In this document: piece by piece, positions 12,801 through 23,447 of the stretch
How positions within the stretch are numbered: position 1 is the first letter of the stretch
How the letters are laid out: every line of letters begins with the position of its first letter
Virus record (IMG/VR): IMGVR_UViG_3300030061_001594
Coordinates: 1 to 26,129 of that record
Direction: 5' to 3' (one strand)
Origin: a virus
Length of the DNA: 26,129 bases
Translations under genes and position numbers: made by a program
Notes under the pieces: generated by a model
What the model saw: only the letters and a program-made list of their open reading frames with translations
Database searches by the model: none
What the model was told of the DNA's origin: nothing

Positions 12801-13655
12801 CTATCCCTGTCCAGTTGGTTTCACGCCTTGAAACGCTGTGAATGCTCCTATACCAGTACCAACAGCTTGAGCTAGTGGACTAGTTGTAGGTTGTGTACCC
12901 ATTGTAACCTGAGAAGATGACTTAGGTCCTGCAGCATACAAGTTAGCTAAGAATTCAGCTCTTTGGTATGGTTCATACTGTTGTTGTAATGTAGATTGTC
13001 TTTGTGCATCAAGTGTTGCTTGTGCAAGTTGTCTTTGGATACCACCTGCAGCCATAAGTTGATTTATGTCCGATTGAGCCATTTGTTGTTGGCCTGCACC
13101 TAATTGACCTAAAAGTTGTCCGCTTTGCAATCCAACTCTTTGTTGGTTCTGTGCTGCTTGAAGTGCAGTATTAAATCCTTGTGCTTGTGCTTGACCCATT
13201 GCAGATAATGCTCTCCCTTGTAACTCTGCTTGTTGAACACCTTCTCTGCCACCACCAAATGCTCCAGCACCAACAGCTTGAGATCCTAATTGATTTTGCA
13301 TCATTTGAGATTGTCTAGCTATTTCATCTGTAACATAAGATTGATATGGGTTTAAATATTGTGAAATTTGTTGTGCACCAATAGGTGCCGCTGCCTGTTG
13401 TACTTGACTTATACCTTGTTGAACAGTAGGAGCACCAATACCTGTAGTTCCCGCAGCTTGAATACCTTGTTGTTCTAAAGCACCTAACCCTGCTACTTGG
13501 TAGTCTGGTAAATCAATGGGCTTTTGCGCTACTTGACGCGCAATATCCATTAATTCTAATTTTCTTTCCTCTATACCAGGAGCTTCTCTAACAATTTGTG
13601 TTTGTGTTGATGGTGGAGCTGATGAACCTCCGCCTCCTCCTCCGAAAAAACTCAT
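12801..13655 (-). CDS. Gln/Ala-rich virion protein, probable ejection protein
   Basis: This 284-residue protein begins with a six-glycine run (SFFGGGGGGSS). Its body is very rich in Gln, Ala and Gly, such as QGFNTALQAAQNQQRVGLQ and GQLLGQLGAGQQQM, and is probably helical. A central YLNPYQSYVTDEIARQ motif and GAFGGGREGVQQAELQGRAL recur in marine podovirus proteins of this kind as I remember them. The C-terminus is Thr/Gly-rich (TGIGAFTAFQGVKPTGQ). It lies between the giant proteins and the GNAT-like gene, so an ejection or internal core role is likely (compare P22 gp7/gp20 or T7 gp14). There is no signal peptide and no catalytic motif. Confidence 0.68.
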   Translation of the reverse strand: MSFFGGGGGGSSAPPSTQTQIVREAPGIEERKLELMDIARQVAQKPIDLPDYQVAGLGALEQQGIQAAGTTGIGAPTVQQGISQVQQAAAPIGAQQISQYLNPYQSYVTDEIARQSQMMQNQLGSQAVGAGAFGGGREGVQQAELQGRALSAMGQAQAQGFNTALQAAQNQQRVGLQSGQLLGQLGAGQQQMAQSDINQLMAAGGIQRQLAQATLDAQRQSTLQQQYEPYQRAEFLANLYAAGPKSSSQVTMGTQPTTSPLAQAVGTGIGAFTAFQGVKPTGQG

Positions 13656-13656
13656 A

Positions 13657-14118
13657 TTATATCCATTTCTCTAGTTGCACGTGTTTCTTTTTCCATCCCC
13701 ATTTTTTAGAAATTTTCTCCCATCCGGGTCTGGCCATTATACTTAATCTTTTGCATTTGTTAACAGTAGCAAAATCAGTAACTGCTTTAATAAGGTTATC
13801 TTCCCATAGTTCTCTTCTTTTACCTGTACAAATAACAATTTCGTATTGATTATAATTTGGCATAACACCAATTCTACCAACACAAATACCAAAAACTTTA
13901 TTTTCTTCAAATTCATCTGAACCAAACATGATCCAACATTGCATAGTATCTTTTTTTAATTCATCCATAACCCAAGCCGAGTCTGCATATTTACCAGAAA
14001 AAGCTAAAGCTTCTGCAATCATAAATTCTGCTAGAGGCCAAAATCTTTCAATATCTTTAGGTTCTAAAGGAAGAATACTTACTAAAGGTTTAATTTGTTT
14101 TTTGTTCGCTGTTGCCAT
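13657..14118 (-). CDS. GNAT-like virion-associated protein (T7 gp13-like context)
   Basis: This 153-residue protein has the strand-helix order of an acyl-CoA N-acyltransferase fold: ERFWPLAEFMIAEALAFSG, QCWIMFGSD, KVFGICVGRIGVMP, YEIVICTGKR then a helix, KRLSIMARPGWEKI and a final strand HVQLEKW. The acetyl-CoA loop (Q/RxxGxG/A) is not clear, so catalysis is doubtful. T7-type phages carry a GNAT-fold protein of this size, gp13, at the matching place beside their ejection proteins, which is needed for virion assembly. I chose the ATG at 14118 because CAGGAT lies 7 bases upstream; the longer frame to 14184 overlaps the previous gene too far. The start overlaps that gene by 29 bases. Confidence 0.65.
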   Translation of the reverse strand: MATANKKQIKPLVSILPLEPKDIERFWPLAEFMIAEALAFSGKYADSAWVMDELKKDTMQCWIMFGSDEFEENKVFGICVGRIGVMPNYNQYEIVICTGKRRELWEDNLIKAVTDFATVNKCKRLSIMARPGWEKISKKWGWKKKHVQLEKWI

Positions 14119-15094
14119 TTCTATCCTGTAATAAATCAAATACACGTTTGTATCTTTTTTGTTGTTCATAGAAATATTGGGCACCTTTTTCTCGCATGTC
14201 TTTCATGCTATTTGGATTAGCTCCAGCTATGATTCCAGCACCTAATACTCCATCCGCTCTTGTTACAAACTCTCCGTCTGCTAATTGAGCTAACATTGTA
14301 TCCTCGTCTTTGTTTCCTACGCCTGCTCCGTCTTCAACATAACCTGATGCTCTTACATAATTGTTAGCATCATTTTCATCATGTGAAACTTTTGATGGAA
14401 GATAGTTTACACCACCTTCATTAAATTTTTTAATTTCTGCTATACCACCTACTCTCAATCTTTGAACATTCATAGAATAAGGACCCATTCTTGGATCGCC
14501 TCTACCTGCTTCTTCAGGTGCATAAACTTTTTCATAAGCTCTTTCTTCACCTGTAGTTGGATCAATGTAAGTGTATCCAGGTCTATTAGCTTGTAAGTCT
14601 AAATAACCCATGTTGTATCCTGGTGTGTAAATATCCGTTGGCCCTTGATCGAAAGCACCTAGTCCATAACTTGTTGCTGCTAACATTGCAGATGCTTTAA
14701 AAGGATCTAATTTGTTAACCTTATCTTTTTGATATAAAAGTTTTTGCATCATTGTTCTTTGATCATTAGCTTTATTTAAACTTGCTATTGTGTCAGTAGC
14801 TACTCCAGGGTCTGCTCGACCAACCATTTTGGGATCTACTCCACCACCACTACCACCAAACAAAGGATTGTTTAGAAAACTTAAAGGACCTGTTTTAGTT
14901 GCTTGAAAAGCTGCTTGTGTTGTAGGAGAGCCAAACGCTCCTATACCTGCAGAACCTAAGGTATAACCACTATAAGCTCCTGCCGCAGCACCTAATAATC
15001 TTTTTATGCCAGATGCCCCTGCATCCTTCGCACTTTTGTAACCTTTGTAACCACCTATAGCTGCTAATGCGTAGGGTAAAAATTGAATGGGCAT
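14090..15094 (-). CDS. Gly-rich virion protein (334 residues)
   Basis: The N-terminal 65 residues are a Gly/Ala-rich hydrophobic region (YALAAIGGYKGYKSAKDAGA, then LLGAAAGAYSGYTLGSAGIG) that may insert into a membrane. The C-terminal third holds GGVNYLPSKVSHDENDANNY and LAQLADGEFVTRADGVLGAG. The second of these resembles a motif seen in minor virion proteins of many marine phages, where ADGEFV is followed by a helix and GA. It is the first gene after the promoter at 15130-15158, with AAGGAG well placed before its ATG, so it leads the ejection-protein transcript. The role is inferred as internal virion or head-completion. No enzyme motif is seen. Confidence 0.65.
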   Translation of the reverse strand: MPIQFLPYALAAIGGYKGYKSAKDAGASGIKRLLGAAAGAYSGYTLGSAGIGAFGSPTTQAAFQATKTGPLSFLNNPLFGGSGGGVDPKMVGRADPGVATDTIASLNKANDQRTMMQKLLYQKDKVNKLDPFKASAMLAATSYGLGAFDQGPTDIYTPGYNMGYLDLQANRPGYTYIDPTTGEERAYEKVYAPEEAGRGDPRMGPYSMNVQRLRVGGIAEIKKFNEGGVNYLPSKVSHDENDANNYVRASGYVEDGAGVGNKDEDTMLAQLADGEFVTRADGVLGAGIIAGANPNSMKDMREKGAQYFYEQQKRYKRVFDLLQDRNGNSEQKTN

Positions 15095-15129: not shown

Positions 15130-15158
15130 ATAATACCATTTTACTCAGACAGTTTCAA
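15130..15158 (-). promoter_or_regulatory. Sigma70-type promoter for the ejection-protein genes
   Basis: Read on the minus strand, TTGAAA (15153-15158) is followed by exactly 17 bases and TATTAT (15130-15135), five of six matches to each consensus box. The predicted start is near 15123, about 29 bases before the ATG of the 334-residue gene. The -35 box lies in the last codons of the glycosyltransferase gene. This is one of the few gaps in an otherwise overlapping gene run, which adds support. Confidence 0.6.
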
Positions 15159-16022
15159 CTCGTCTCTAAAACAACCCTCATATTGGTGTTCTCCTACATG
15201 TATAATAGGGTCATTGACATAGACATAACATTTACCACCAATGTCTTTCCAAAGCTTACAGAATGAAAAATCTTCACCTAAATAAGTCTTAGTTTCCGGG
15301 TCGTGTATACAATCAAAAAAGTTCCATAGATTAGGTCTATTTACATACTCACCATTAATAACAGTCTTTTGAACTATGTTTTTATCTGGATACTTTTCTA
15401 TCATCTTGTCAAACACTGATCTTTTAATCAACATACATCCTGTAGGGCTATGGGTAACTTCCATAACACCATTATCTAATTTTATATTGTTAGGATTCTC
15501 AACTTTCATAGGGTAAGTATTCAGCCATCTATGTATGTCTCCAGGATTTCTCACTTCACCATTATTCCATTTTTTGTAAAGTTTATCCCACATCATAGTT
15601 TTGAGAGGATAAGGAATTGATATTAATTCTTTATCTATATCTAACATTTTTATTATCGATTCTGCTCTGAAATATATATCTGAATCAACAAACAACATAT
15701 GTGTGCAACTTGATTCTAAAAAAGCTGAAGTACAAAGGTTTCTTCCTTGAGTTACCAAAGAAGATTTTAATAAAGTAAATGTAATTCTAATTCCTTTTTT
15801 AATACAAAGTTGTTGTAGTTCTAGTAACGCTTGTGTGTAATGCATAGTCACATCACTATGACAAGGCGTACAAATCATTAAACTGTATTTTGATTTACTT
15901 ACTTTCTTTGTTTCTTTTTGTCCGGTGTCCGGTTTCCACATTGGAAGAGTAGCTTTTTCGTATGGTGTGACCTCGACTTCTTTTAAAGTTTGGTATGTAT
16001 CTTCATTTACTGTTTCTTTCAT
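15141..16022 (-). CDS. GT-A-type glycosyltransferase
   Basis: This is a 293-residue soluble protein. After a variable 45-residue start, residues 46-54 (YSLMICTPC) form the first Rossmann strand. VTQGRNL (90-96) and MLFVDSDIY with DSD at 113-115 supply the metal/nucleotide-sugar site. SPTGCMLIKR (192-201) and YLGEDFSFCKLWKDIGG, with GED at 249-251, mark the acceptor and catalytic region, and H275 and H279 near the end may also bind metal. The layout fits GT2 or Anp1-like (GT62) transferases. It should move a sugar from a nucleotide sugar to an unknown acceptor. AAGGAG lies 6 bases before the ATG, and the start overlaps the second transferase by 20 bases, so the two are probably made together. 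Confidence 0.85.
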   Translation of the reverse strand: MKETVNEDTYQTLKEVEVTPYEKATLPMWKPDTGQKETKKVSKSKYSLMICTPCHSDVTMHYTQALLELQQLCIKKGIRITFTLLKSSLVTQGRNLCTSAFLESSCTHMLFVDSDIYFRAESIIKMLDIDKELISIPYPLKTMMWDKLYKKWNNGEVRNPGDIHRWLNTYPMKVENPNNIKLDNGVMEVTHSPTGCMLIKRSVFDKMIEKYPDKNIVQKTVINGEYVNRPNLWNFFDCIHDPETKTYLGEDFSFCKLWKDIGGKCYVYVNDPIIHVGEHQYEGCFRDELKLSE

Positions 16023-16938
16023 GCAGAGCTCCTTTCAAAAAGTTTGTCCATTCCATACCCTTTTTCTCCCAACTATAAAATCTTTTATAAAACTTTTGCT
16101 GCTCCTCTAGATGGTCTTGCATAAAACCTTCATGTAGATAATCAGCTGCTATATTAATTGCACTTCCAGTATCTTGTGCCATTTGTTCATAGTTTGTAGA
16201 GTAATTAATGTAGACAGGCCACTCTGCACAAGTTTCATACAAAGCTCCAAAATTATTAGTAATTACATGCAAACCAGATGCTAAAGCTTCTAACGCTGAT
16301 GCACAGGATGTTTCTTCAAATATAGATGGATATACAAACATATCATAAGAAGGCATCATTTCTTTTATATATTCATGTGGTTTGTAACCAATGTAATTTA
16401 CATTTGGTAATTTTTTAGCTTGTTCGTACAATGCTTCAAAATCTTTTTCAGTATTTTTTTCAAACTCAGATCCATAAACTTTACACGAACTATAAACATC
16501 TAATTTTATATTAGGGTTTTCAATTTCTTGCATAGCACGTAATAAAACATTTAAACCTCTCCAAGGTGTGCAGTGATGTATTAATTTGATGGGATTTCCT
16601 CTTTTATATTTTTTTCTTATTGGAAAATTGTCTATACCATTTTTTATTACTATAGATTTTTCAGTTGGTATATCAAAGGCATATCTAAATTTTTCATAAT
16701 TCCAATGACTATTAAAAACATACCAATCATATTCTTTGTGTCTTTCCTTATCTTTGAAAAATTTTTGTAAGTTAGGTTGATCCCAAGAATTCTTTTGCCA
16801 AAGTATATTTAATTTATCTGGGTCTAATGGAACTTTACCTGGTATGGAAGTACAAATTTGTACTTGATCTAACAGTTCTTTGGAAACATGCTTATGGAGC
16901 ATCTCCATTTGGATTTCTGTTGCTCCTCGAGGTTGCAT
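16003..16938 (-). CDS. GT4-family (GT-B) glycosyltransferase
   Basis: This is a 311-residue protein. The C-terminal domain is clearly GT-B: IKLIHHCTPWRGLNVLLRAM with R127, a YIGYKPHEYIKEMMPSYDMF stretch, then YPSIFEETSCASALEALASG with the E-x7-E pair (E209 and E217) that holds the nucleotide sugar in retaining GT4 enzymes. It is shorter than usual (350-400). The N-terminus opens at MQPRGATEIQMEMLHKHV, which matches the helix after the glycine loop, so the first strand of the fold is missing or reduced. It is coupled to the 65-residue gene by a TAATG overlap and to the GT-A gene by 20 bases. Confidence 0.85.
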   Translation of the reverse strand: MQPRGATEIQMEMLHKHVSKELLDQVQICTSIPGKVPLDPDKLNILWQKNSWDQPNLQKFFKDKERHKEYDWYVFNSHWNYEKFRYAFDIPTEKSIVIKNGIDNFPIRKKYKRGNPIKLIHHCTPWRGLNVLLRAMQEIENPNIKLDVYSSCKVYGSEFEKNTEKDFEALYEQAKKLPNVNYIGYKPHEYIKEMMPSYDMFVYPSIFEETSCASALEALASGLHVITNNFGALYETCAEWPVYINYSTNYEQMAQDTGSAINIAADYLHEGFMQDHLEEQQKFYKRFYSWEKKGMEWTNFLKGALHERNSK

Positions 16939-17135
16939 TATTTTTTAGTGGCAGCCCCCATAGTAACTTTAGTAACTTTGATTTCAAGGTCTTGTCTAAA
17001 GTCATCCACAGTAGTATCAGTATTGGGATCAGCAACATCAGCATCAAACTCAGCTTTATCAGCATAGACTTTACCCGTCCTTTTATGTTTGACTATCTCT
17101 TTTGCTTCTGCAGGTATTTTTATTAAATCACTCAT
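16938..17135 (-). CDS. Small conserved hypothetical protein (65 residues)
   Basis: The protein starts SDLIKIPAEAKEIVKHKRTG and continues KVYADKAEFDADVADPN, ending in a basic ATKK. The pattern KHKRTGKVYADKAEF looks like a short two-strand unit with a processed or exposed tail. No family is recognised with confidence. Its ATG overlaps the stop of the 46-residue basic protein (ATGA) and its stop overlaps the glycosyltransferase start, so it belongs to the same run. Position among virion genes suggests a minor structural or assembly part, but nothing in the sequence proves that. Confidence 0.65.
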   Translation of the reverse strand: MSDLIKIPAEAKEIVKHKRTGKVYADKAEFDADVADPNTDTTVDDFRQDLEIKVTKVTMGAATKK

Positions 17136-17272
17136 TTTTGTCTACGTCCTTGTCTATTGTATTTTTTATTATGTTGCAACTTCTTTTTTTTATTTGGGTT
17201 TTTTGCATGCCTTCTAGGTCTTTTCTTTGGTTTATCCCTTGGTACAAAATGTGTAAATTTTTGTTTAGCCAT
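17132..17272 (-). CDS. 46-residue highly basic protein
   Basis: The frame runs from ATG 17272 to TGA 17132. About 40% of residues are Lys, Arg or His, with the core HFVPRDKPKKRPRRHAKNPN followed by a Lys-run and QGRRQK. The start FTHFVPRDKPKKRPxRH recalls a small protein found in marine T4-like cyanophages and pelagiphages, also of unknown function. CAGGA lies close to the ATG, inside the end of the 111-residue gene (8-base overlap). The charge suggests nucleic acid binding, or binding to an acidic virion surface. The conserved start and the coupling on both sides support a real gene despite its size. Confidence 0.75.
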   Translation of the reverse strand: MAKQKFTHFVPRDKPKKRPRRHAKNPNKKKKLQHNKKYNRQGRRQK

Positions 17273-17600
17273 TTTCCTGTGAACGATCAATCAAAGCATA
17301 ACTTACAATACCTGTGATCGCGTTAGCTGCTCCTGCTTGCATAGATAAAACATCACTTGCTTCTAGATTTAAAGATCCTTTAACCATATTTGCAGTTGCC
17401 TTATTTAATTCTTCGTAAGATATTTTTACAGCAGATCCACCTGATTTTGTCACTAAAGCATGAGTATCAACATTACTAGAAGTGTCATGTACAGCTTGTA
17501 TGCTTTTTACAATAATAGTTGCATCACTAGGACATGTTAATACAGGTGTAACATTGGTAGTTGTTAAATCAAATGTTTCGCTTTTATATCTTATTGTCAT
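17265..17600 (-). CDS. Small beta-rich virion protein (111 residues)
   Basis: The sequence is Thr/Ser/Val-rich with short alternating strands: YKSETFDLTTTNVTPVLTCP, ATIIVKSIQAVHDTSS, ALVTKSGGSAVKISYEELNK, SLNLEASDVLSMQAGAAN and GIVSYALIDRS. This pattern fits a small beta-sandwich, as in head decoration, head-tail joining or tail proteins whose genes lie near the tail hub gene. I recall similar proteins in marine phages without a proven role. The ATG overlaps the stop of the 54-residue gene (ATGA). Confidence 0.7.
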   Translation of the reverse strand: MTIRYKSETFDLTTTNVTPVLTCPSDATIIVKSIQAVHDTSSNVDTHALVTKSGGSAVKISYEELNKATANMVKGSLNLEASDVLSMQAGAANAITGIVSYALIDRSQENG

Positions 17601-17761: not shown

Positions 17762-18179
17762 GCAACGCTCCACCTCTTTCTGAAGAATCAAAACCACCCC
17801 TAGATGGACTACTTGGTGCGCTTTGGTTTGCTCCTCCAGGTCTATCTCCTCTTCCTCTATCACCCTCGGAAGAACCTTGATTATTTAATCTTTGTTGAAT
17901 TTGTTGTATATCGCTTCTTCTCTGATCAGCCATAACTTGTCTTTGCATTCTTTTGTTTTCTAAGTAATTAGATATCAAACCAGATCTACCAGTTAATGCA
18001 GAAATACCAACTAAAGGGTTTATGGCAGTACCAAATACAGTCGATCCTAAAGCTTCTAAACCTATTTTTTCACCAAGTTTGTTAAGAGCAACATTTCTTA
18101 TTACATTTCCGCCTATTGTTCTAAAATCAGGTAAAGTTGTTCCTTCATCAATTAAAGGTTTAATACCAAGTTGTTCCAT
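17754..18179 (-). CDS. Virion-region protein with disordered Gly/Ser tail (141 residues)
   Basis: The first 65 residues contain a Gly/Ile/Leu-rich segment (IGLEALGSTVFGTAINPLVG then ISALTGRSGLI) with moderate hydrophobicity. A charged helix follows (NKRMQRQVMADQRRSDIQQI). The last 40 residues are low-complexity Gly, Ser, Arg and Pro (EGDRGRGDRPGGANQSAPSS). The start overlaps the stop of the tail hub gene (TAATG). The mix of a semi-hydrophobic segment, helix and disordered tail fits a small virion or ejection protein. I do not recognise a family. Confidence 0.62.
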   Translation of the reverse strand: MEQLGIKPLIDEGTTLPDFRTIGGNVIRNVALNKLGEKIGLEALGSTVFGTAINPLVGISALTGRSGLISNYLENKRMQRQVMADQRRSDIQQIQQRLNNQGSSEGDRGRGDRPGGANQSAPSSPSRGGFDSSERGGALHG

Positions 18180-20107
18180 TATCTTCTTCCATCAATATTC
18201 ACATCAGCCCTAAAGGTTCCAAACCTCCAAGTTTCGTTAACTGCTGTGTTTTGTATTTTTAAATTAGCCAATCGTCCTCTAGCTCTTGTATCAATTTTAC
18301 TTGTAGATGAGTTTATAGTAAAAGGACCCAATTGGGAAGAGGTTCCTGAGTCAATTGGAAAGTTCTTTAAGAATATAGTCACTATTGCATTTCCTTGTAA
18401 ATTTTTGAAATCAGGTAAAAATCTACTTACTCTTAGCATATATTGACCATCTCCTTCAGTTGGTAAATCAAAATCACCTGATTGTATGTATGCTGGAATC
18501 GCAGTTTCAGTACCATTTAAAGATATTTCATTATTACCTACCTCATGTGCATAATAAGTAGTAGCTCCAAAGGTATTAGTCGCTCCACTTAAATTAGAAA
18601 TTGTTGGAGTACCAGTTGAAGAATATTCAGTTGCATAAGGCACATCATATGTACTAGCATCCGCATAAGAACTTCTTGCAAGGGACATTACCGACCATGT
18701 ATTTTCTACATAATTATATACAGCAGCTCTGTTATTTTGAACAGCAGGGTTTCCTAAGGGTGTGCCTGAAGGATAAAACCAAATAATTTCATTAAATAAA
18801 GAGTTGTGTGAACCATATATAATTTCATTAGATGAGTAGTTTATTCCTACATTTGATCCGGTGGTCGTAAATACAAAGTCTTCAACAAGTGAAGGAAGTA
18901 ATTTAACCGTACCATCAAACACAAAGAATCCTCCACCTGAACCCATCCAAAATACTTTACCGTCTGCATATACAGTAGCGTGTTGACCAATACATCCACA
19001 GTTGGAACCAACTTGTCTTATAGAAAAAGTAAATGGTGGACCTACAAACTGCATTGTGTACGCTGCTTGATCAGTCAAAATTAAATTATAATCTTTACCA
19101 GATACGGCTGCTACGATTTTGTTTCCGGTGTCCAGTCTAAATGTTCCAGCAGTATTTACAGAAGTAGGTTGATAAACATTATAGTTTTCTTGATCACTAA
19201 ATCTAATAAACATTGGGTCTTGTGTTGTATTATCTCCAATCGTAGTCTCAGTTCCAAAATGAACAACGTGCCTATCCCTGTCTGAAGTTATAGTTAATCT
19301 TGATGCTGTTGGAGCTCCTGTCATAACTGTAGCTCTAACCGTCAAAGGATTTGAGACACCAGGGTTCCAAGTAAATGTTTTACCATCTTTTACTGTTGCT
19401 ATTAATTGTTGTCCAAAATTATCTAATGACCATGTTCCAGGATCAAGTATAACTGTGGAACTTGTTGTAGCAGAACCCCATGTTCCTCTACTCCATGTAC
19501 CTGTACCCCATCCATAACCATATGTTTGAATAGTCGGACCAATTTCTTCGTAAGGGTTAATACTTGCAGAGCCTGCTGCAGTCATACCTGTTCCCGACTC
19601 ATTTGTTTTCATTTGAACCGTAAAAGAATTAACATTTGGAACAGTTAAAATTTCAAAAGTAAAATCTTGAAAATCACCTGTAGTATAACCCGTTGCTCCA
19701 CCACCAGGTAAACTCACAGAAGTAAAAGTTATATATTCTCCAATATCTAAACCATGAGAAGATTTATTTACAGTAACAGTATTTGATCCGTTTGTTGATG
19801 TAAAAGTTGCACCTGTTATAGCAGTTGCTAAAGGTGTTATATCATAAAATTTATCTTCATAATAAATATATAAAGCCTTTGAAGAACCAAGTGCTGCATA
19901 TCTATTACCTTCTAAATCTGTCCAAGTGTGTTGAGCACGTGTTGGTCCTGCAATTGTTTCTTGACCAATGGCTGTATAACCACCTATTTTTTCTGGTTGA
20001 CCATATCTAAATCTAACAAAATCTCCATCAATCCATTGTCCTTCTGCTCCTGATGGGGTATCTGCTTTATTAATTCCTGGTCGAATAGTTACGTTTGTTA
20101 AAGGCAT
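18179..20107 (-). CDS. Tail hub/nozzle protein (P22 gp10 or T7 gp12-like)
   Basis: This 642-residue protein is beta-rich. It opens TNVTIRPGINKADTPSGAEG then QWIDGDFVRFRYGQPEKIGG, a start I recall as typical of a tail protein in marine podoviruses. The middle has repeated WD-like beta motifs such as GNKIVAAVSGKDYNLILTDQ and SNCGCIGQHATVYADGKVFW followed by MGSGGGFFVFDG. This recalls the barrel of packaged-DNA stabilisation or nozzle proteins (P22 gp10, T7 gp12), which close the tail channel and carry fibres. Placement between the small tail genes and the fibre genes agrees. The precise family is uncertain. No enzyme motif is present. Confidence 0.68.
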   Translation of the reverse strand: MPLTNVTIRPGINKADTPSGAEGQWIDGDFVRFRYGQPEKIGGYTAIGQETIAGPTRAQHTWTDLEGNRYAALGSSKALYIYYEDKFYDITPLATAITGATFTSTNGSNTVTVNKSSHGLDIGEYITFTSVSLPGGGATGYTTGDFQDFTFEILTVPNVNSFTVQMKTNESGTGMTAAGSASINPYEEIGPTIQTYGYGWGTGTWSRGTWGSATTSSTVILDPGTWSLDNFGQQLIATVKDGKTFTWNPGVSNPLTVRATVMTGAPTASRLTITSDRDRHVVHFGTETTIGDNTTQDPMFIRFSDQENYNVYQPTSVNTAGTFRLDTGNKIVAAVSGKDYNLILTDQAAYTMQFVGPPFTFSIRQVGSNCGCIGQHATVYADGKVFWMGSGGGFFVFDGTVKLLPSLVEDFVFTTTGSNVGINYSSNEIIYGSHNSLFNEIIWFYPSGTPLGNPAVQNNRAAVYNYVENTWSVMSLARSSYADASTYDVPYATEYSSTGTPTISNLSGATNTFGATTYYAHEVGNNEISLNGTETAIPAYIQSGDFDLPTEGDGQYMLRVSRFLPDFKNLQGNAIVTIFLKNFPIDSGTSSQLGPFTINSSTSKIDTRARGRLANLKIQNTAVNETWRFGTFRADVNIDGRR

Positions 20108-20125
20108 AAGCCATTTTACATCATT

Positions 20126-20800
20126 TTATAGCTTCATCCAAGTCGCAGGGGAAGGTATATTATGTTCAGATTTAACACCTTCTTTCATAGTTAACATTAT
20201 ATCACCTGATATTGATATTCGAGGTACATCTTTAGTATTCTTTCCAGTTTCATGAAACATCATAGAAGGAAATATAATCACATTACCAGTTTCGGCAGGA
20301 TACTCAGCTTTACCATAATTACTTTGGTTCCACTCTGTGAAATATGGATCTCTTTTAGGTACGTTTAATCCAACCTTATGTGCGTCATCATCAAGTAAAA
20401 AAAGATTACCCTGCTCATAGGCTTGCGGATAATAAACAAAACTAAAATGACTACTCATGTGTCTATGGTAAGATATAAACTGGTCTTTAACTGATAGAGT
20501 TGCCCAAGACTTTGTGATATATGCTTCAAGCAAATCTAAATTATATTTTTGTGCAGACAAACAATCTTGTATTACTTTTGATAGTTCATTATATAATTTT
20601 TCAAATCTTATATCTGTATGAAGGTTATCATCAATGGTTTGTAATTCTTTTGGTTTTATATCTGTGGTTGTTGAGTATTGAGAATTGGTTGGAGTAATAT
20701 CTCTAAGTATTATTGGTACAATCTTTTTATTTATTTCTTCAAAGTTTTCTAGCTTAGTTATATATATTGGGTAACCAAACCATTTTGATATATTAGCCAT
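20126..20800 (-). CDS. 2-oxoglutarate/Fe(II)-dependent oxygenase
   Basis: This 224-residue protein carries the double-stranded beta-helix motif of the 2OG-Fe(II) oxygenase group common in marine phages (PF13759-like): ISYHRHMSSHFSFVYYPQAY with H112/H114 as iron ligands, GNLFLLDD, then TGNVIIFPSMMFHETGKN with distal ligand H183, and PRISISGDI with R194 to bind 2-oxoglutarate. It should hydroxylate a protein, nucleotide or small molecule using O2 and 2-oxoglutarate. I chose the ATG at 20800 because AAGGG lies 7-8 bases upstream; the longer frame adds 7 residues. The start overlaps the ParB-like gene by 8 bases. The substrate is unknown. Confidence 0.8.
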   Translation of the reverse strand: MANISKWFGYPIYITKLENFEEINKKIVPIILRDITPTNSQYSTTTDIKPKELQTIDDNLHTDIRFEKLYNELSKVIQDCLSAQKYNLDLLEAYITKSWATLSVKDQFISYHRHMSSHFSFVYYPQAYEQGNLFLLDDDAHKVGLNVPKRDPYFTEWNQSNYGKAEYPAETGNVIIFPSMMFHETGKNTKDVPRISISGDIMLTMKEGVKSEHNIPSPATWMKL

Positions 20801-21110
20801 CAAGTTTCCCTTGATAATCAAACCAAATATAGCTATTTAATTTTGATAATAATTTTTCCATGTCATTATCCTTTACCACATATACAAGTGTTTCTGTACA
20901 AAAATCTTTAATAGCTTCATACCTATGGTGACCATCGATTAATACACCATTATTAACAACTAATGGACATAACAAACCATTTAATTTTATATCAATTTCT
21001 AATTGATCTATTAGTTCTTGATTATTATTAGATTGATTAGGCTTTATATTTTTAAATTTATATCTTTGAAGTATTGAATTAAAAATAATTTTTTTAGGTT
21101 TAAGAAACAC
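20793..21110 (-). CDS. Stand-alone ParB/sulfiredoxin-fold protein
   Basis: This 105-residue protein has the ParB N-terminal domain signature: a helix with IDQLEIDIKLNGLLCPLVV, where I-x-x-N-G-L-x-x-P-L-V-V is box I, then VLIDGHHRYEAIKDF (residues 57-71). Canonical partition ParB has GERRxxA at the second site. DGHHR is the form used by ParB-fold small-molecule enzymes such as the serine kinases SerK and SbnI, from my memory. No DNA-binding HTH follows, so partitioning is unlikely. The start is a GTG in a TAGTG overlap with the adhesin gene stop; no other start lies near. It could be a kinase, a nucleotide-dependent switch or a nuclease. Confidence 0.72.
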   Translation of the reverse strand: MFLKPKKIIFNSILQRYKFKNIKPNQSNNNQELIDQLEIDIKLNGLLCPLVVNNGVLIDGHHRYEAIKDFCTETLVYVVKDNDMEKLLSKLNSYIWFDYQGKLDG

Positions 21111-22748: not shown

Positions 22749-22777
22749 ATTATACCCTTTTTAAGCTGCCTTATCAA
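22749..22777 (-). promoter_or_regulatory. Near-consensus sigma70 promoter for the fibre gene
   Basis: Read on the minus strand, TTGATA (22772-22777) is followed by 17 bases and a perfect TATAAT (22749-22754). Only 8 bases (ACTAAATT) separate the -10 box from the ATG at 22740, so the start of transcription would be 1-3 bases before the ATG. No Shine-Dalgarno lies in usable range, which fits a leaderless mRNA. The -35 box overlaps the last codons and stop of the 228-residue gene. Confidence 0.65.
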
Positions 22778-23447
22778 CTTCTGTCCAAATGTTAGAAACT
22801 CCTTTATTTACCTCAGTCCATGTATTCGTTACATCTGGATCTACGTTAGACCATGCAGTAACTAATGGACTATTAATAGAAGCTGTCATTTGTATACCTG
22901 TTACATCTACAACTGTATTTAGATCTATTGTTACTGAAGCTATAGAACCTGTTAATTGTGATCCTGTAACATCTACAGGAGTATTAACATCTATTGTTTC
23001 CTCACCTAGGCTAGCTGTTATCTGTGTTCCTGTAACGTTAATATTAGCGTCAGCTGTTACTGTTGTTGAACCAATTGAAGTAACCATGTCATGCTCGGTG
23101 ACAACTACACTTACATTACCATCTGCAGAGATTGAATATGTTCCTAAAGATAAACCTAATTGAGATCCTGTAACTGACACAGTTGCATTTGCTAAAGGAG
23201 TTTCTTCTCCAAGTGTCATTGTTAATTGTGAGCCTGTTACACCTACAATTGTATTTAAGTCTATTGTGGAATTACCTAAAGATCCTGTTAATTGAACGCC
23301 TGTAACATTTATATTAGCATCTCCTGTTACAGATTGTACTGCTCCTATACTAGAAGCTAAACTAATACCTGTGACTGCAGCAGTTGCGTTCGATGAACCT
23401 GTAGCTGCAAAAGGAGCTTCTGCAAATGTAGTTATTCCAAAAGCCAT
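22761..23447 (-). CDS. Tandem-repeat beta protein, probable tail fibre/appendage
   Basis: This 228-residue protein is nearly all tandem repeats of 22-23 residues, with a VTG-x-Q-L-T-x-S-L-G core then an acidic T-I-D-x-N-T segment. VTG occurs at residues 25, 48, 70, 92, 138, 160 and 182, with a diverged copy near 115 (VVVTEHDMVTSIG). The regular strand-turn pattern predicts a beta-solenoid or stacked sheet. The last 25 residues hold two 11-residue units with (N)xWTEV, at 208-213 and 219-224, possibly a cap or anchor. Strong Ser/Thr/Asn content and position among fibre genes suggest a surface appendage. No named family is recognised. Confidence 0.72.
   Translation of the reverse strand: MAFGITTFAEAPFAATGSSNATAAVTGISLASSIGAVQSVTGDANINVTGVQLTGSLGNSTIDLNTIVGVTGSQLTMTLGEETPLANATVSVTGSQLGLSLGTYSISADGNVSVVVTEHDMVTSIGSTTVTADANINVTGTQITASLGEETIDVNTPVDVTGSQLTGSIASVTIDLNTVVDVTGIQMTASINSPLVTAWSNVDPDVTNTWTEVNKGVSNIWTEVDKAA
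22848..23378 (-). repeat. Eight-copy 22-23 residue repeat (VTGxQLTxSLG)
   Basis: The periods between successive VTG sites are 23, 22, 22, 23, 23, 22 and 22 residues, counting the diverged fifth copy. Pairs such as the second and sixth copies (DANINVTG then TIDxNT) match better than neighbours, which suggests that blocks of several units were duplicated together. Confidence 0.82.

What the first reader, a model, noticed from the sequence alone, without database searches (positions are those of the whole stretch)
15141..16938. Two unrelated glycosyltransferases inside the virion operon
Seen: a GT-A enzyme (DSD, GED motifs) and a GT-B enzyme (E-x7-E) overlap by 20 bases and sit between tail and ejection genes. 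Two different folds made together suggest a two-sugar pathway. Together with the oxygenase nearby, one inference is hydroxylation followed by glycosylation of virion fibres, as happens on hydroxylated residues in some collagens. The alternative is changing host surface sugars to block superinfection.
Basis: partly seen in the sequence, partly recalled or inferred. Interest (0 to 1): 0.6.

Follow-up and report, generated by a model that had tools for sequence, protein, structure and literature searches.

The report
Paired sugar-transferases in ocean phage virion operon
The most abundant known kind of virus infecting the ocean bacterium SAR11 carries two genes for sugar-attaching enzymes, locked together in the block that makes the virus particle; they probably decorate the particle's own proteins with sugar, but that has not been shown.

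Summary
The window is a fragment of an HTVC023P-type pelagiphage. A GT-A enzyme (15141-16022) and a GT-B enzyme (16003-16938) overlap by 20 nt on the minus strand, between a tail/stabilisation gene and ejection-protein genes. Catalytic residues are intact, dN/dS is about 0.07, and the pair is conserved in HTVC023P, HTVC027P and many environmental relatives. Over 135 distinct pairs, 128 are within 20 nt of each other. Surveyed pelagiphages have both genes or neither, and the two co-vary (r 0.94). A second, unrelated lineage (marine virus AG-345-L05 and kin) has both families side by side in reverse order, among tail-fibre-like genes, 2OG oxygenases and a sulfotransferase. The GT-A model and profile match STIV A197, an essential archaeal-virus glycosyltransferase thought to glycosylate the coat protein.

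Best reading: sequential glycosylation of a virion protein (about 0.5). A canonical DNA route is disfavoured: GT-bearing pelagiphages lack thymidylate-synthase-type hydroxymethylase, TET/JBP and C5-methyltransferase; sliding-clamp-linked cousins in T4-like phages form a separate clade. Hydroxylation-then-glycosylation is only partly supported: oxygenases accompany nearly all GT pairs but also occur in GT-lacking relatives, and no collagen-like repeats are present. Acceptor and sugars are unknown.

The parts
16003..16938 (-). GT-B (GT4-like) glycosyltransferase, 311 aa; E209-x7-E217, R127; N-terminal domain short, starting at the GxTE loop; start codon overlaps the stop of the upstream 65-aa gene (TAATG)
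   Evidence: homologues HTVC023P gp77 (72%) and HTVC027P gp80 (56%)
15141..16022 (-). GT-A glycosyltransferase, 293 aa (phrog_1574 family); DSD 113-115, GED 249-251, H275
   Evidence: homologues HTVC023P gp78 (63%) and HTVC027P gp81 (52%)
16029..16034 (-). Shine-Dalgarno AAGGAG for GT-A, inside the 3' end of GT-B, 6 nt before the ATG
   Evidence: sequence
16003..16022 (-). 20-nt overlap of GT-B and GT-A (conserved in 122 of 126 close loci)
16938..17135 (-). 65-aa conserved protein directly upstream of GT-B; also present in GT-lacking relatives, so not GT-specific
20126..20821 (-). 2OG-Fe(II) oxygenase (PF13759, phrog_81), candidate but unproven partner
18179..20107 (-). virion structural / stabilisation protein (phrog_3287), upstream context
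17265..17600 (-). small conserved operon protein (111 aa), upstream context; also in GT-lacking relatives
14090..15094 (-). 334-aa operon protein next after GT-A, presumed virion/ejection; related gene in GT-lacking phages
12801..13655 (-). DNA ejection protein (phrog_4287), downstream context

Best explanation
The two genes form a translationally coupled two-enzyme glycosylation module made with the virion proteins. One glycosyltransferase, most likely the A197-like GT-A, puts a first sugar on a side chain of a virion protein (a tail, fibre or other exposed structural protein). The other, most likely the GT-B, extends it with a second sugar, using host nucleotide sugars. The result would be a short glycan on the particle that alters adsorption, stability or recognition. 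Shown here: both enzymes are intact, conserved, coupled and selected together, and the pair recurs in an unrelated phage lineage among tail-fibre-like genes. Inferred: that both are active, the order of addition, that the acceptor is a virion protein, which protein it is, and which sugars are used.
For: Intact active-site residues in 88-90 GT-As and E-x7-E in GT-B; dN/dS about 0.07 for both. Fixed 20-nt overlap in 122/126 close loci; 128 of 135 distinct pairs within 20 nt. Both present or both absent in 29 of 29 tail-anchored loci with enough flank: 5 with both, 24 with neither. GT-A and GT-B distances correlate at r 0.94 over 109 pairs, 0 of 999 permutations as high. Independent pairing in reverse order, interleaved with large kelch-like fibre ORFs, 2OG oxygenases and a sulfotransferase in AG-345-L05 and kin. 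Location between stabilisation and ejection genes with no terminator-like site on the operon strand between 17265 and 15141. GT-A profile hits STIV A197 at E 6.6e-6, fold Z 17.8; A197 is essential, the STIV coat protein is glycosylated, and A197 is proposed, not proven, as its enzyme (PMC10551542). Neither GT has a membrane-spanning stretch. The window's GT-A lies in a clade of paired enzymes apart from the sliding-clamp-linked clade.
Against: No acceptor protein or glycan is identified; virion glycosylation has not been reported for any pelagiphage in the literature I could search. Operon position does not prove the acceptor: phage auxiliary genes often sit in late operons. Cousins of the GT-A in T4-like phages sit in replication modules, so the family is not confined to virion work. 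GT-lacking relatives live without the pair, so it is not universally needed. Late expression was not verified: the HTVC027P transcriptome text does not name gp80/gp81. The fold match is weakened by GT-A being a common fold.
Confidence: 0.5

Rival explanations
1. The pair alters a host surface glycan (LPS core or O-chain) during infection, blocking superinfection or readsorption of progeny to debris, as was proposed for glycosyltransferases of pelagimyophages.
For: GT-B's nearest curated families are LPS/exopolysaccharide GT4 enzymes, all far below cut-off. In Cr30 the GT-B homologue sits beside a UDP-glucose 4-epimerase, a heptose kinase and phosphoheptose isomerase. Pelagimyophage authors favour O-chain modification and note that only one of more than 100 SAR11 genomes had a restriction system (PMC7029224).
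Against: The pair sits inside the virion operon, presumably expressed late, when exclusion would help little. Neither enzyme has a membrane segment. GT-A resembles viral and eukaryotic protein glycosyltransferases more than LPS enzymes. AG-345-L05 has the pair among fibre-like genes.
Confidence: 0.2
2. The pair glycosylates a modified base of the phage DNA, as T4 alpha- and beta-glucosyltransferases do.
For: Distant GT-A cousins in T4-like phages lie within about 600 bp of the sliding-clamp gene in 77 of 80 loci, and T4 alpha-GT binds the clamp gp45 (PMC13216743). Cr30 and DLP6, which hold both GT families, encode TET/JBP oxygenases, in DLP6 a few genes upstream of GT-A. Some HTVC023P-type clades carry hypermodification genes (PMC9599517).
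Against: HTVC023P, HTVC027P and GT-bearing records of 58, 53 and 44 kb have no thymidylate-synthase-type enzyme, no C5-methyltransferase and no TET/JBP. The pelagiphage GT-As form their own clade, without the clamp-linked gene order. The pair is in the virion operon, not with replication genes. Several clamp-clade phages also lack TET/JBP and TS.
Confidence: 0.12
3. A 2OG oxygenase hydroxylates a side chain of a virion protein and the two GTs then build a disaccharide on the new hydroxyl, the first reader's collagen-like scheme (a special case of the best explanation).
For: At least one 2OG oxygenase in 50 of 53 distinct GT-bearing loci with enough flank. An oxygenase lies between GT-B and GT-A in L493 and directly upstream of GT-B in L480, L528, L539 and L494. 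AG-345-L05-type loci interleave GTs, oxygenases and fibre-like genes. LH3 and COLGALT1 are among the closest folds of GT-A.
Against: GT-lacking relatives carry 2OG oxygenases too. The oxygenases are of several non-orthologous types and positions. The LH3 match is to chain residues 293-536, which from general knowledge is the accessory domain, not the catalytic GT domain. No G-X-Y repeats in the window. O-glycosylation of Ser/Thr needs no hydroxylation.
Confidence: 0.2
4. The pair makes a soluble or lipid glycoconjugate (for example a modified nucleotide sugar, tRNA base or lipid) unrelated to virion, LPS or DNA.
For: Single GT-A homologues of unknown function occur in alphaproteobacterial chromosomes, including Pelagibacter beside a hisF-like gene.
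Against: Nothing in the operon points to such a substrate; paired GT-A/GT-B in bacterial records was seen only in eight close matches, at least one of which (L550) is phage by its neighbours.
Confidence: 0.1

Closest known systems
STIV A197 (archaeal virus GT-A, proposed coat-protein glycosyltransferase)
   Same: GT-A fold, profile E 6.6e-6 and Z 17.8 (rmsd 2.4) over 163 residues; virus-encoded; soluble; single small catalytic domain
   Different: No GT-B partner is known to me for A197; different virus kind and host domain; A197's acceptor is itself only proposed
Mycobacteriophage Che8/Rita virion glycosylation (GTs that glycosylate capsid and tail tube)
   Same: Tailed phage with more than one GT; sugar on virion proteins is the proposed outcome here and was reported there (PMC11256854, PMC12619734)
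   Different: There the GTs lie near the genome's 3' end (Maravista) and glycans were detected; here the pair is inside the virion operon and no glycan has been measured; sequence relationship of the GTs not tested
T4 alpha-/beta-glucosyltransferases acting on hydroxymethylcytosine DNA
   Same: Two phage GTs used together; clamp-gene adjacency in T4-like cousins of this GT-A
   Different: Both T4 enzymes are GT-B folds (general knowledge); no base-hydroxymethylating gene of the tested types in GT-bearing pelagiphages
Collagen lysyl hydroxylase LH3 / COLGALT1 and Mimivirus R699
   Same: Nearby GT-A folds (Z 15-17); oxygenase plus GT theme
   Different: LH3 match is to residues 293-536, not the catalytic GT domain; no sequence match; separate proteins; no collagen repeats
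Marine virus AG-345-L05 (Kyanoviridae) GT-A/GT-B cluster
   Same: Same two families side by side, with 2OG oxygenases, among fibre-like genes
   Different: Reverse gene order, GT-B carries an extra C-terminal region of about 300 aa, a sulfotransferase nearby

Membership tests
GT-B, Pfam Glycos_transf_1 (GT4-like) | Profile score above curated cut-off | tested here: met
   57.6 bits against 26.4
GT-B, Pfam Glycos_transf_1 (GT4-like) | E-x7-E motif in the C-terminal domain | tested here: met
   E209/E217 invariant in the family alignment
GT-B, Pfam Glycos_transf_1 (GT4-like) | Complete N-terminal Rossmann domain | tested here: inconclusive
   Protein starts at the GxTE loop; Glyco_transf_4 matches only residues 56-103, below cut-off; GT-B was not modelled
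GT-A fold glycosyltransferase | DxD metal motif and GT-A fold | tested here: met
   D113 and D115 invariant; model pLDDT 89; many GT-A matches up to Z 17.8
Pfam Anp1 (GT62) | Score above curated cut-off | tested here: not met
   17.0 bits against 28.8 for the window protein; weak hits in 48 of 88 relatives
STIV A197-like viral GT | Significant sequence-profile and fold match | tested here: met
   E 6.6e-6, Z 17.8
Virion-glycosylation system (as in Che8) | Glycan on a structural protein | not testable with these tools
   needs mass spectrometry of virions
Virion-glycosylation system (as in Che8) | GT genes linked to virion genes | tested here: met
   between phrog_3287 and phrog_4287 genes; same in HTVC023P and HTVC027P
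DNA glycosylation / hypermodification system | Base-hydroxymethylating enzyme (TS-type, or C5-methylase plus TET/JBP) | tested here: not met
   none in HTVC023P, HTVC027P or long GT-bearing records; PPlase-type genes not searched by family
Hydroxylation-glycosylation (collagen-like) | Oxygenase and GTs co-occur strictly | tested here: not met
   oxygenases also in GT-lacking relatives
Hydroxylation-glycosylation (collagen-like) | Collagen-like G-X-Y acceptor | tested here: not met
   no run of four or more G-X-Y in any frame of the window; the rest of the genome is not held
O-antigen conversion (gtr-type) system | Membrane glycosyltransferase and flippase | tested here: inconclusive
   no membrane stretch in either GT; flippase not searched by family

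The most novel reading that the evidence does not exclude
Pelagiphages and unrelated marine myoviruses independently assembled a virion post-translational modification module: 2OG oxygenases hydroxylate side chains of tail or fibre proteins and a GT-A/GT-B pair (with a sulfotransferase in AG-345-L05) builds a short glycan on them, a phage counterpart of hydroxylysine glycosylation.
Probability: 0.2. Interest if true: 0.8.

Novelty: new variant of a known kind. Interest (0 to 1): 0.55.

Why it matters
[quoted passage not shown] If they glycosylate their particles, sugar-coated virions would be common in the sea, with consequences for adsorption, host range and particle stability. Cultured members (HTVC023P, HTVC027P on HTCC1062) make the question directly testable. 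It also gives a candidate function to a large unnamed phage family (phrog_1574) by linking it to a known viral glycosyltransferase fold.

Tried and rejected
Single-sequence structure prediction of GT-A failed (pLDDT 34); repeated with an 88-row alignment. PDB sequence search with only five GT-As was inconclusive (A197 at E 0.04) and became significant with 88 rows. Strict oxygenase-GT co-occurrence rejected. Canonical DNA hypermodification in GT-bearing pelagiphages disfavoured. GNAT-like gene 13657-14184 as a third pathway enzyme: found in 37 of 49 GT-bearing and 0 of 24 GT-lacking loci, but the GT-lacking set is mostly one clade and the gene also occurs in phages where no GT homologue was found, so not counted. 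Looked for temporal expression of gp80/gp81 in the HTVC027P transcriptome text: not named. Two key papers (on DNA-glycosylating viral GTs and mycobacteriophage virion glycosylation) are not held. The GT-A tree is a quick search; the careful search did not finish.

Full report
Setting. The window is an IMG/VR virus record. The tail protein 18179-20107 is 80% identical to HTVC023P gp72 and gene order matches HTVC023P and HTVC027P, so it is an HTVC023P-type pelagiphage (podovirus of SAR11). A GT-bearing phage-like contig also occurs in a Pelagibacteraceae single-cell genome (L550).

The observation. The GT-B (16003-16938) and GT-A (15141-16022) genes overlap by 20 nt on the minus strand. GT-B is a GT4-like enzyme with E-x7-E and a short N-terminal domain. 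GT-A belongs to phrog_1574, of unknown function; D113 and D115 of its DSD, E250 and D251 of its GED, and H275 are invariant across 88-90 homologues. A strong Shine-Dalgarno for GT-A sits inside GT-B, which fits translational coupling. dN/dS against close relatives has a median of 0.069 (GT-A) and 0.066 (GT-B).

A functional pair. The 20-nt overlap is kept in 122 of 126 close loci. In 135 distinct pairs, 128 are within 20 nt and 124 have the order GT-B then GT-A. In tail-protein-anchored loci with at least 3.5 kb downstream, 5 have both and 24 have neither; none has one alone. That set was anchored on 023Pt_psg01, so the absence is largely one clade. GT-A and GT-B distances correlate at 0.94 over 109 pairs, 0 of 999 permutations as high; shared descent contributes to this. 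Among annotated phages, 15 of 19 records with the GT-B also have the GT-A, including T4-like phages where the two genes are far apart (my count from the tables).

Other contexts. Marine virus AG-345-L05 has GT-A followed directly by GT-B, flanked by large kelch-like ORFs, two DUF6445 proteins (one with a sub-threshold 2OG match), a 2OG-FeII_Oxy_3 protein and a sulfotransferase; several IMG/VR contigs share this. By contrast, 77 of 80 distant GT-As lie within about 600 bp of the sliding-clamp gene, and the GT-As of Cr30, DLP6, phiM12, OspM_OC and RHph_I1_18 also lie just before that gene. On a quick maximum-likelihood tree the pelagiphage GT-As form one clade, AG-345-type another and clamp-linked ones a third.

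Structure. The GT-A model (pLDDT 89) matches STIV A197 best (Z 17.8), then LH3 residues 293-536 (Z about 17), Mimivirus R699 (15.5), COLGALT1 and Mnn9 (15.1), with generic GT-A enzymes near 13. A profile of 88 sequences also hits A197 at E 6.6e-6. A197 is essential to STIV, whose coat protein is glycosylated; A197 is the proposed enzyme, donor and acceptor unproven (PMC10551542). Fold similarity alone does not show function.

Oxygenases. The window's oxygenase (20126-20821) is PF13759. Of 53 distinct GT-bearing loci with at least 6.5 kb upstream, 50 carry at least one 2OG oxygenase-like ORF. Eighteen distinct pairs have one within 400 nt on the same strand (some by profile only), including one between the GTs in L493; Pfam supports the examples in L480, L493, L494, L528 (one of two) and L539. 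But 023Pt_psg01 and other GT-lacking relatives carry 2OG oxygenases as well, so the association is suggestive only. The published survey had already noted three glycosyltransferases and eight non-orthologous 2OG oxygenases in this phage group (PMC9599517).

DNA rival. GT-bearing pelagiphages lack thymidylate-synthase-type enzymes, C5-methyltransferases and TET/JBP. Cr30 and DLP6 do have TET/JBP, so DNA glycosylation remains a fair guess for that separate clade, though other members lack both TET/JBP and TS.

Conclusion. A real, coupled, conserved two-glycosyltransferase module in the virion operon of an abundant ocean phage group. Modification of a virion protein is the best-supported guess (about 0.5); acceptor, sugars and any role of the oxygenases are untested.

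Noticed in passing
L225-L304 (80 loci), Cr30 L130, DLP6 L133, phiM12 L135, OspM_OC L388, RHph_I1_18 L389: Distant GT-A relatives sit next to the T4-type sliding-clamp gene in 77 of 80 loci, a conserved linkage pointing to a DNA-related role in that clade.
   Followed up: partly
KU682439.2 27179-28525 (DLP6) and KF301602.1 59353-60681 (Cr30): Genes annotated 'SNF2 DNA repair protein' match the TET/JBP oxygenase family above its cut-off and look misannotated; both phages also carry both GT families.
   Followed up: partly
window 13657-14184: GNAT-like small protein (my reading of the sequence; only a weak phrog match) found in 37 of 49 GT-bearing and 0 of 24 GT-lacking loci; also in HTVC106P and CRP-7.
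   Followed up: partly
window 20793-21110: ParB-like 105-aa ORF overlapping the start of the oxygenase ORF, inside the virion operon.
   Followed up: no
window 22761-23447: 228-aa protein built of short repeats (VTGxQLxxSLG-like), probably a repetitive tail or fibre protein.
   Followed up: no
window 16938-17135; 023Pt_psg01 L128:39282-39533: 65-aa protein before GT-B has a homologue at the same place in a GT-lacking relative (31%, E 9e-6), so the GT pair looks like a cassette inserted after it.
   Followed up: partly
L387:10091-10918: Sulfotransferase (PF13469) among fibre-like genes and GTs in marine virus AG-345-L05.
   Followed up: no
L611, L612: Stand-alone GT-A homologues in Pelagibacteraceae records on contigs over 130 kb; in L611 beside a hisF-like gene, a possible host source of the family.
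   Followed up: no
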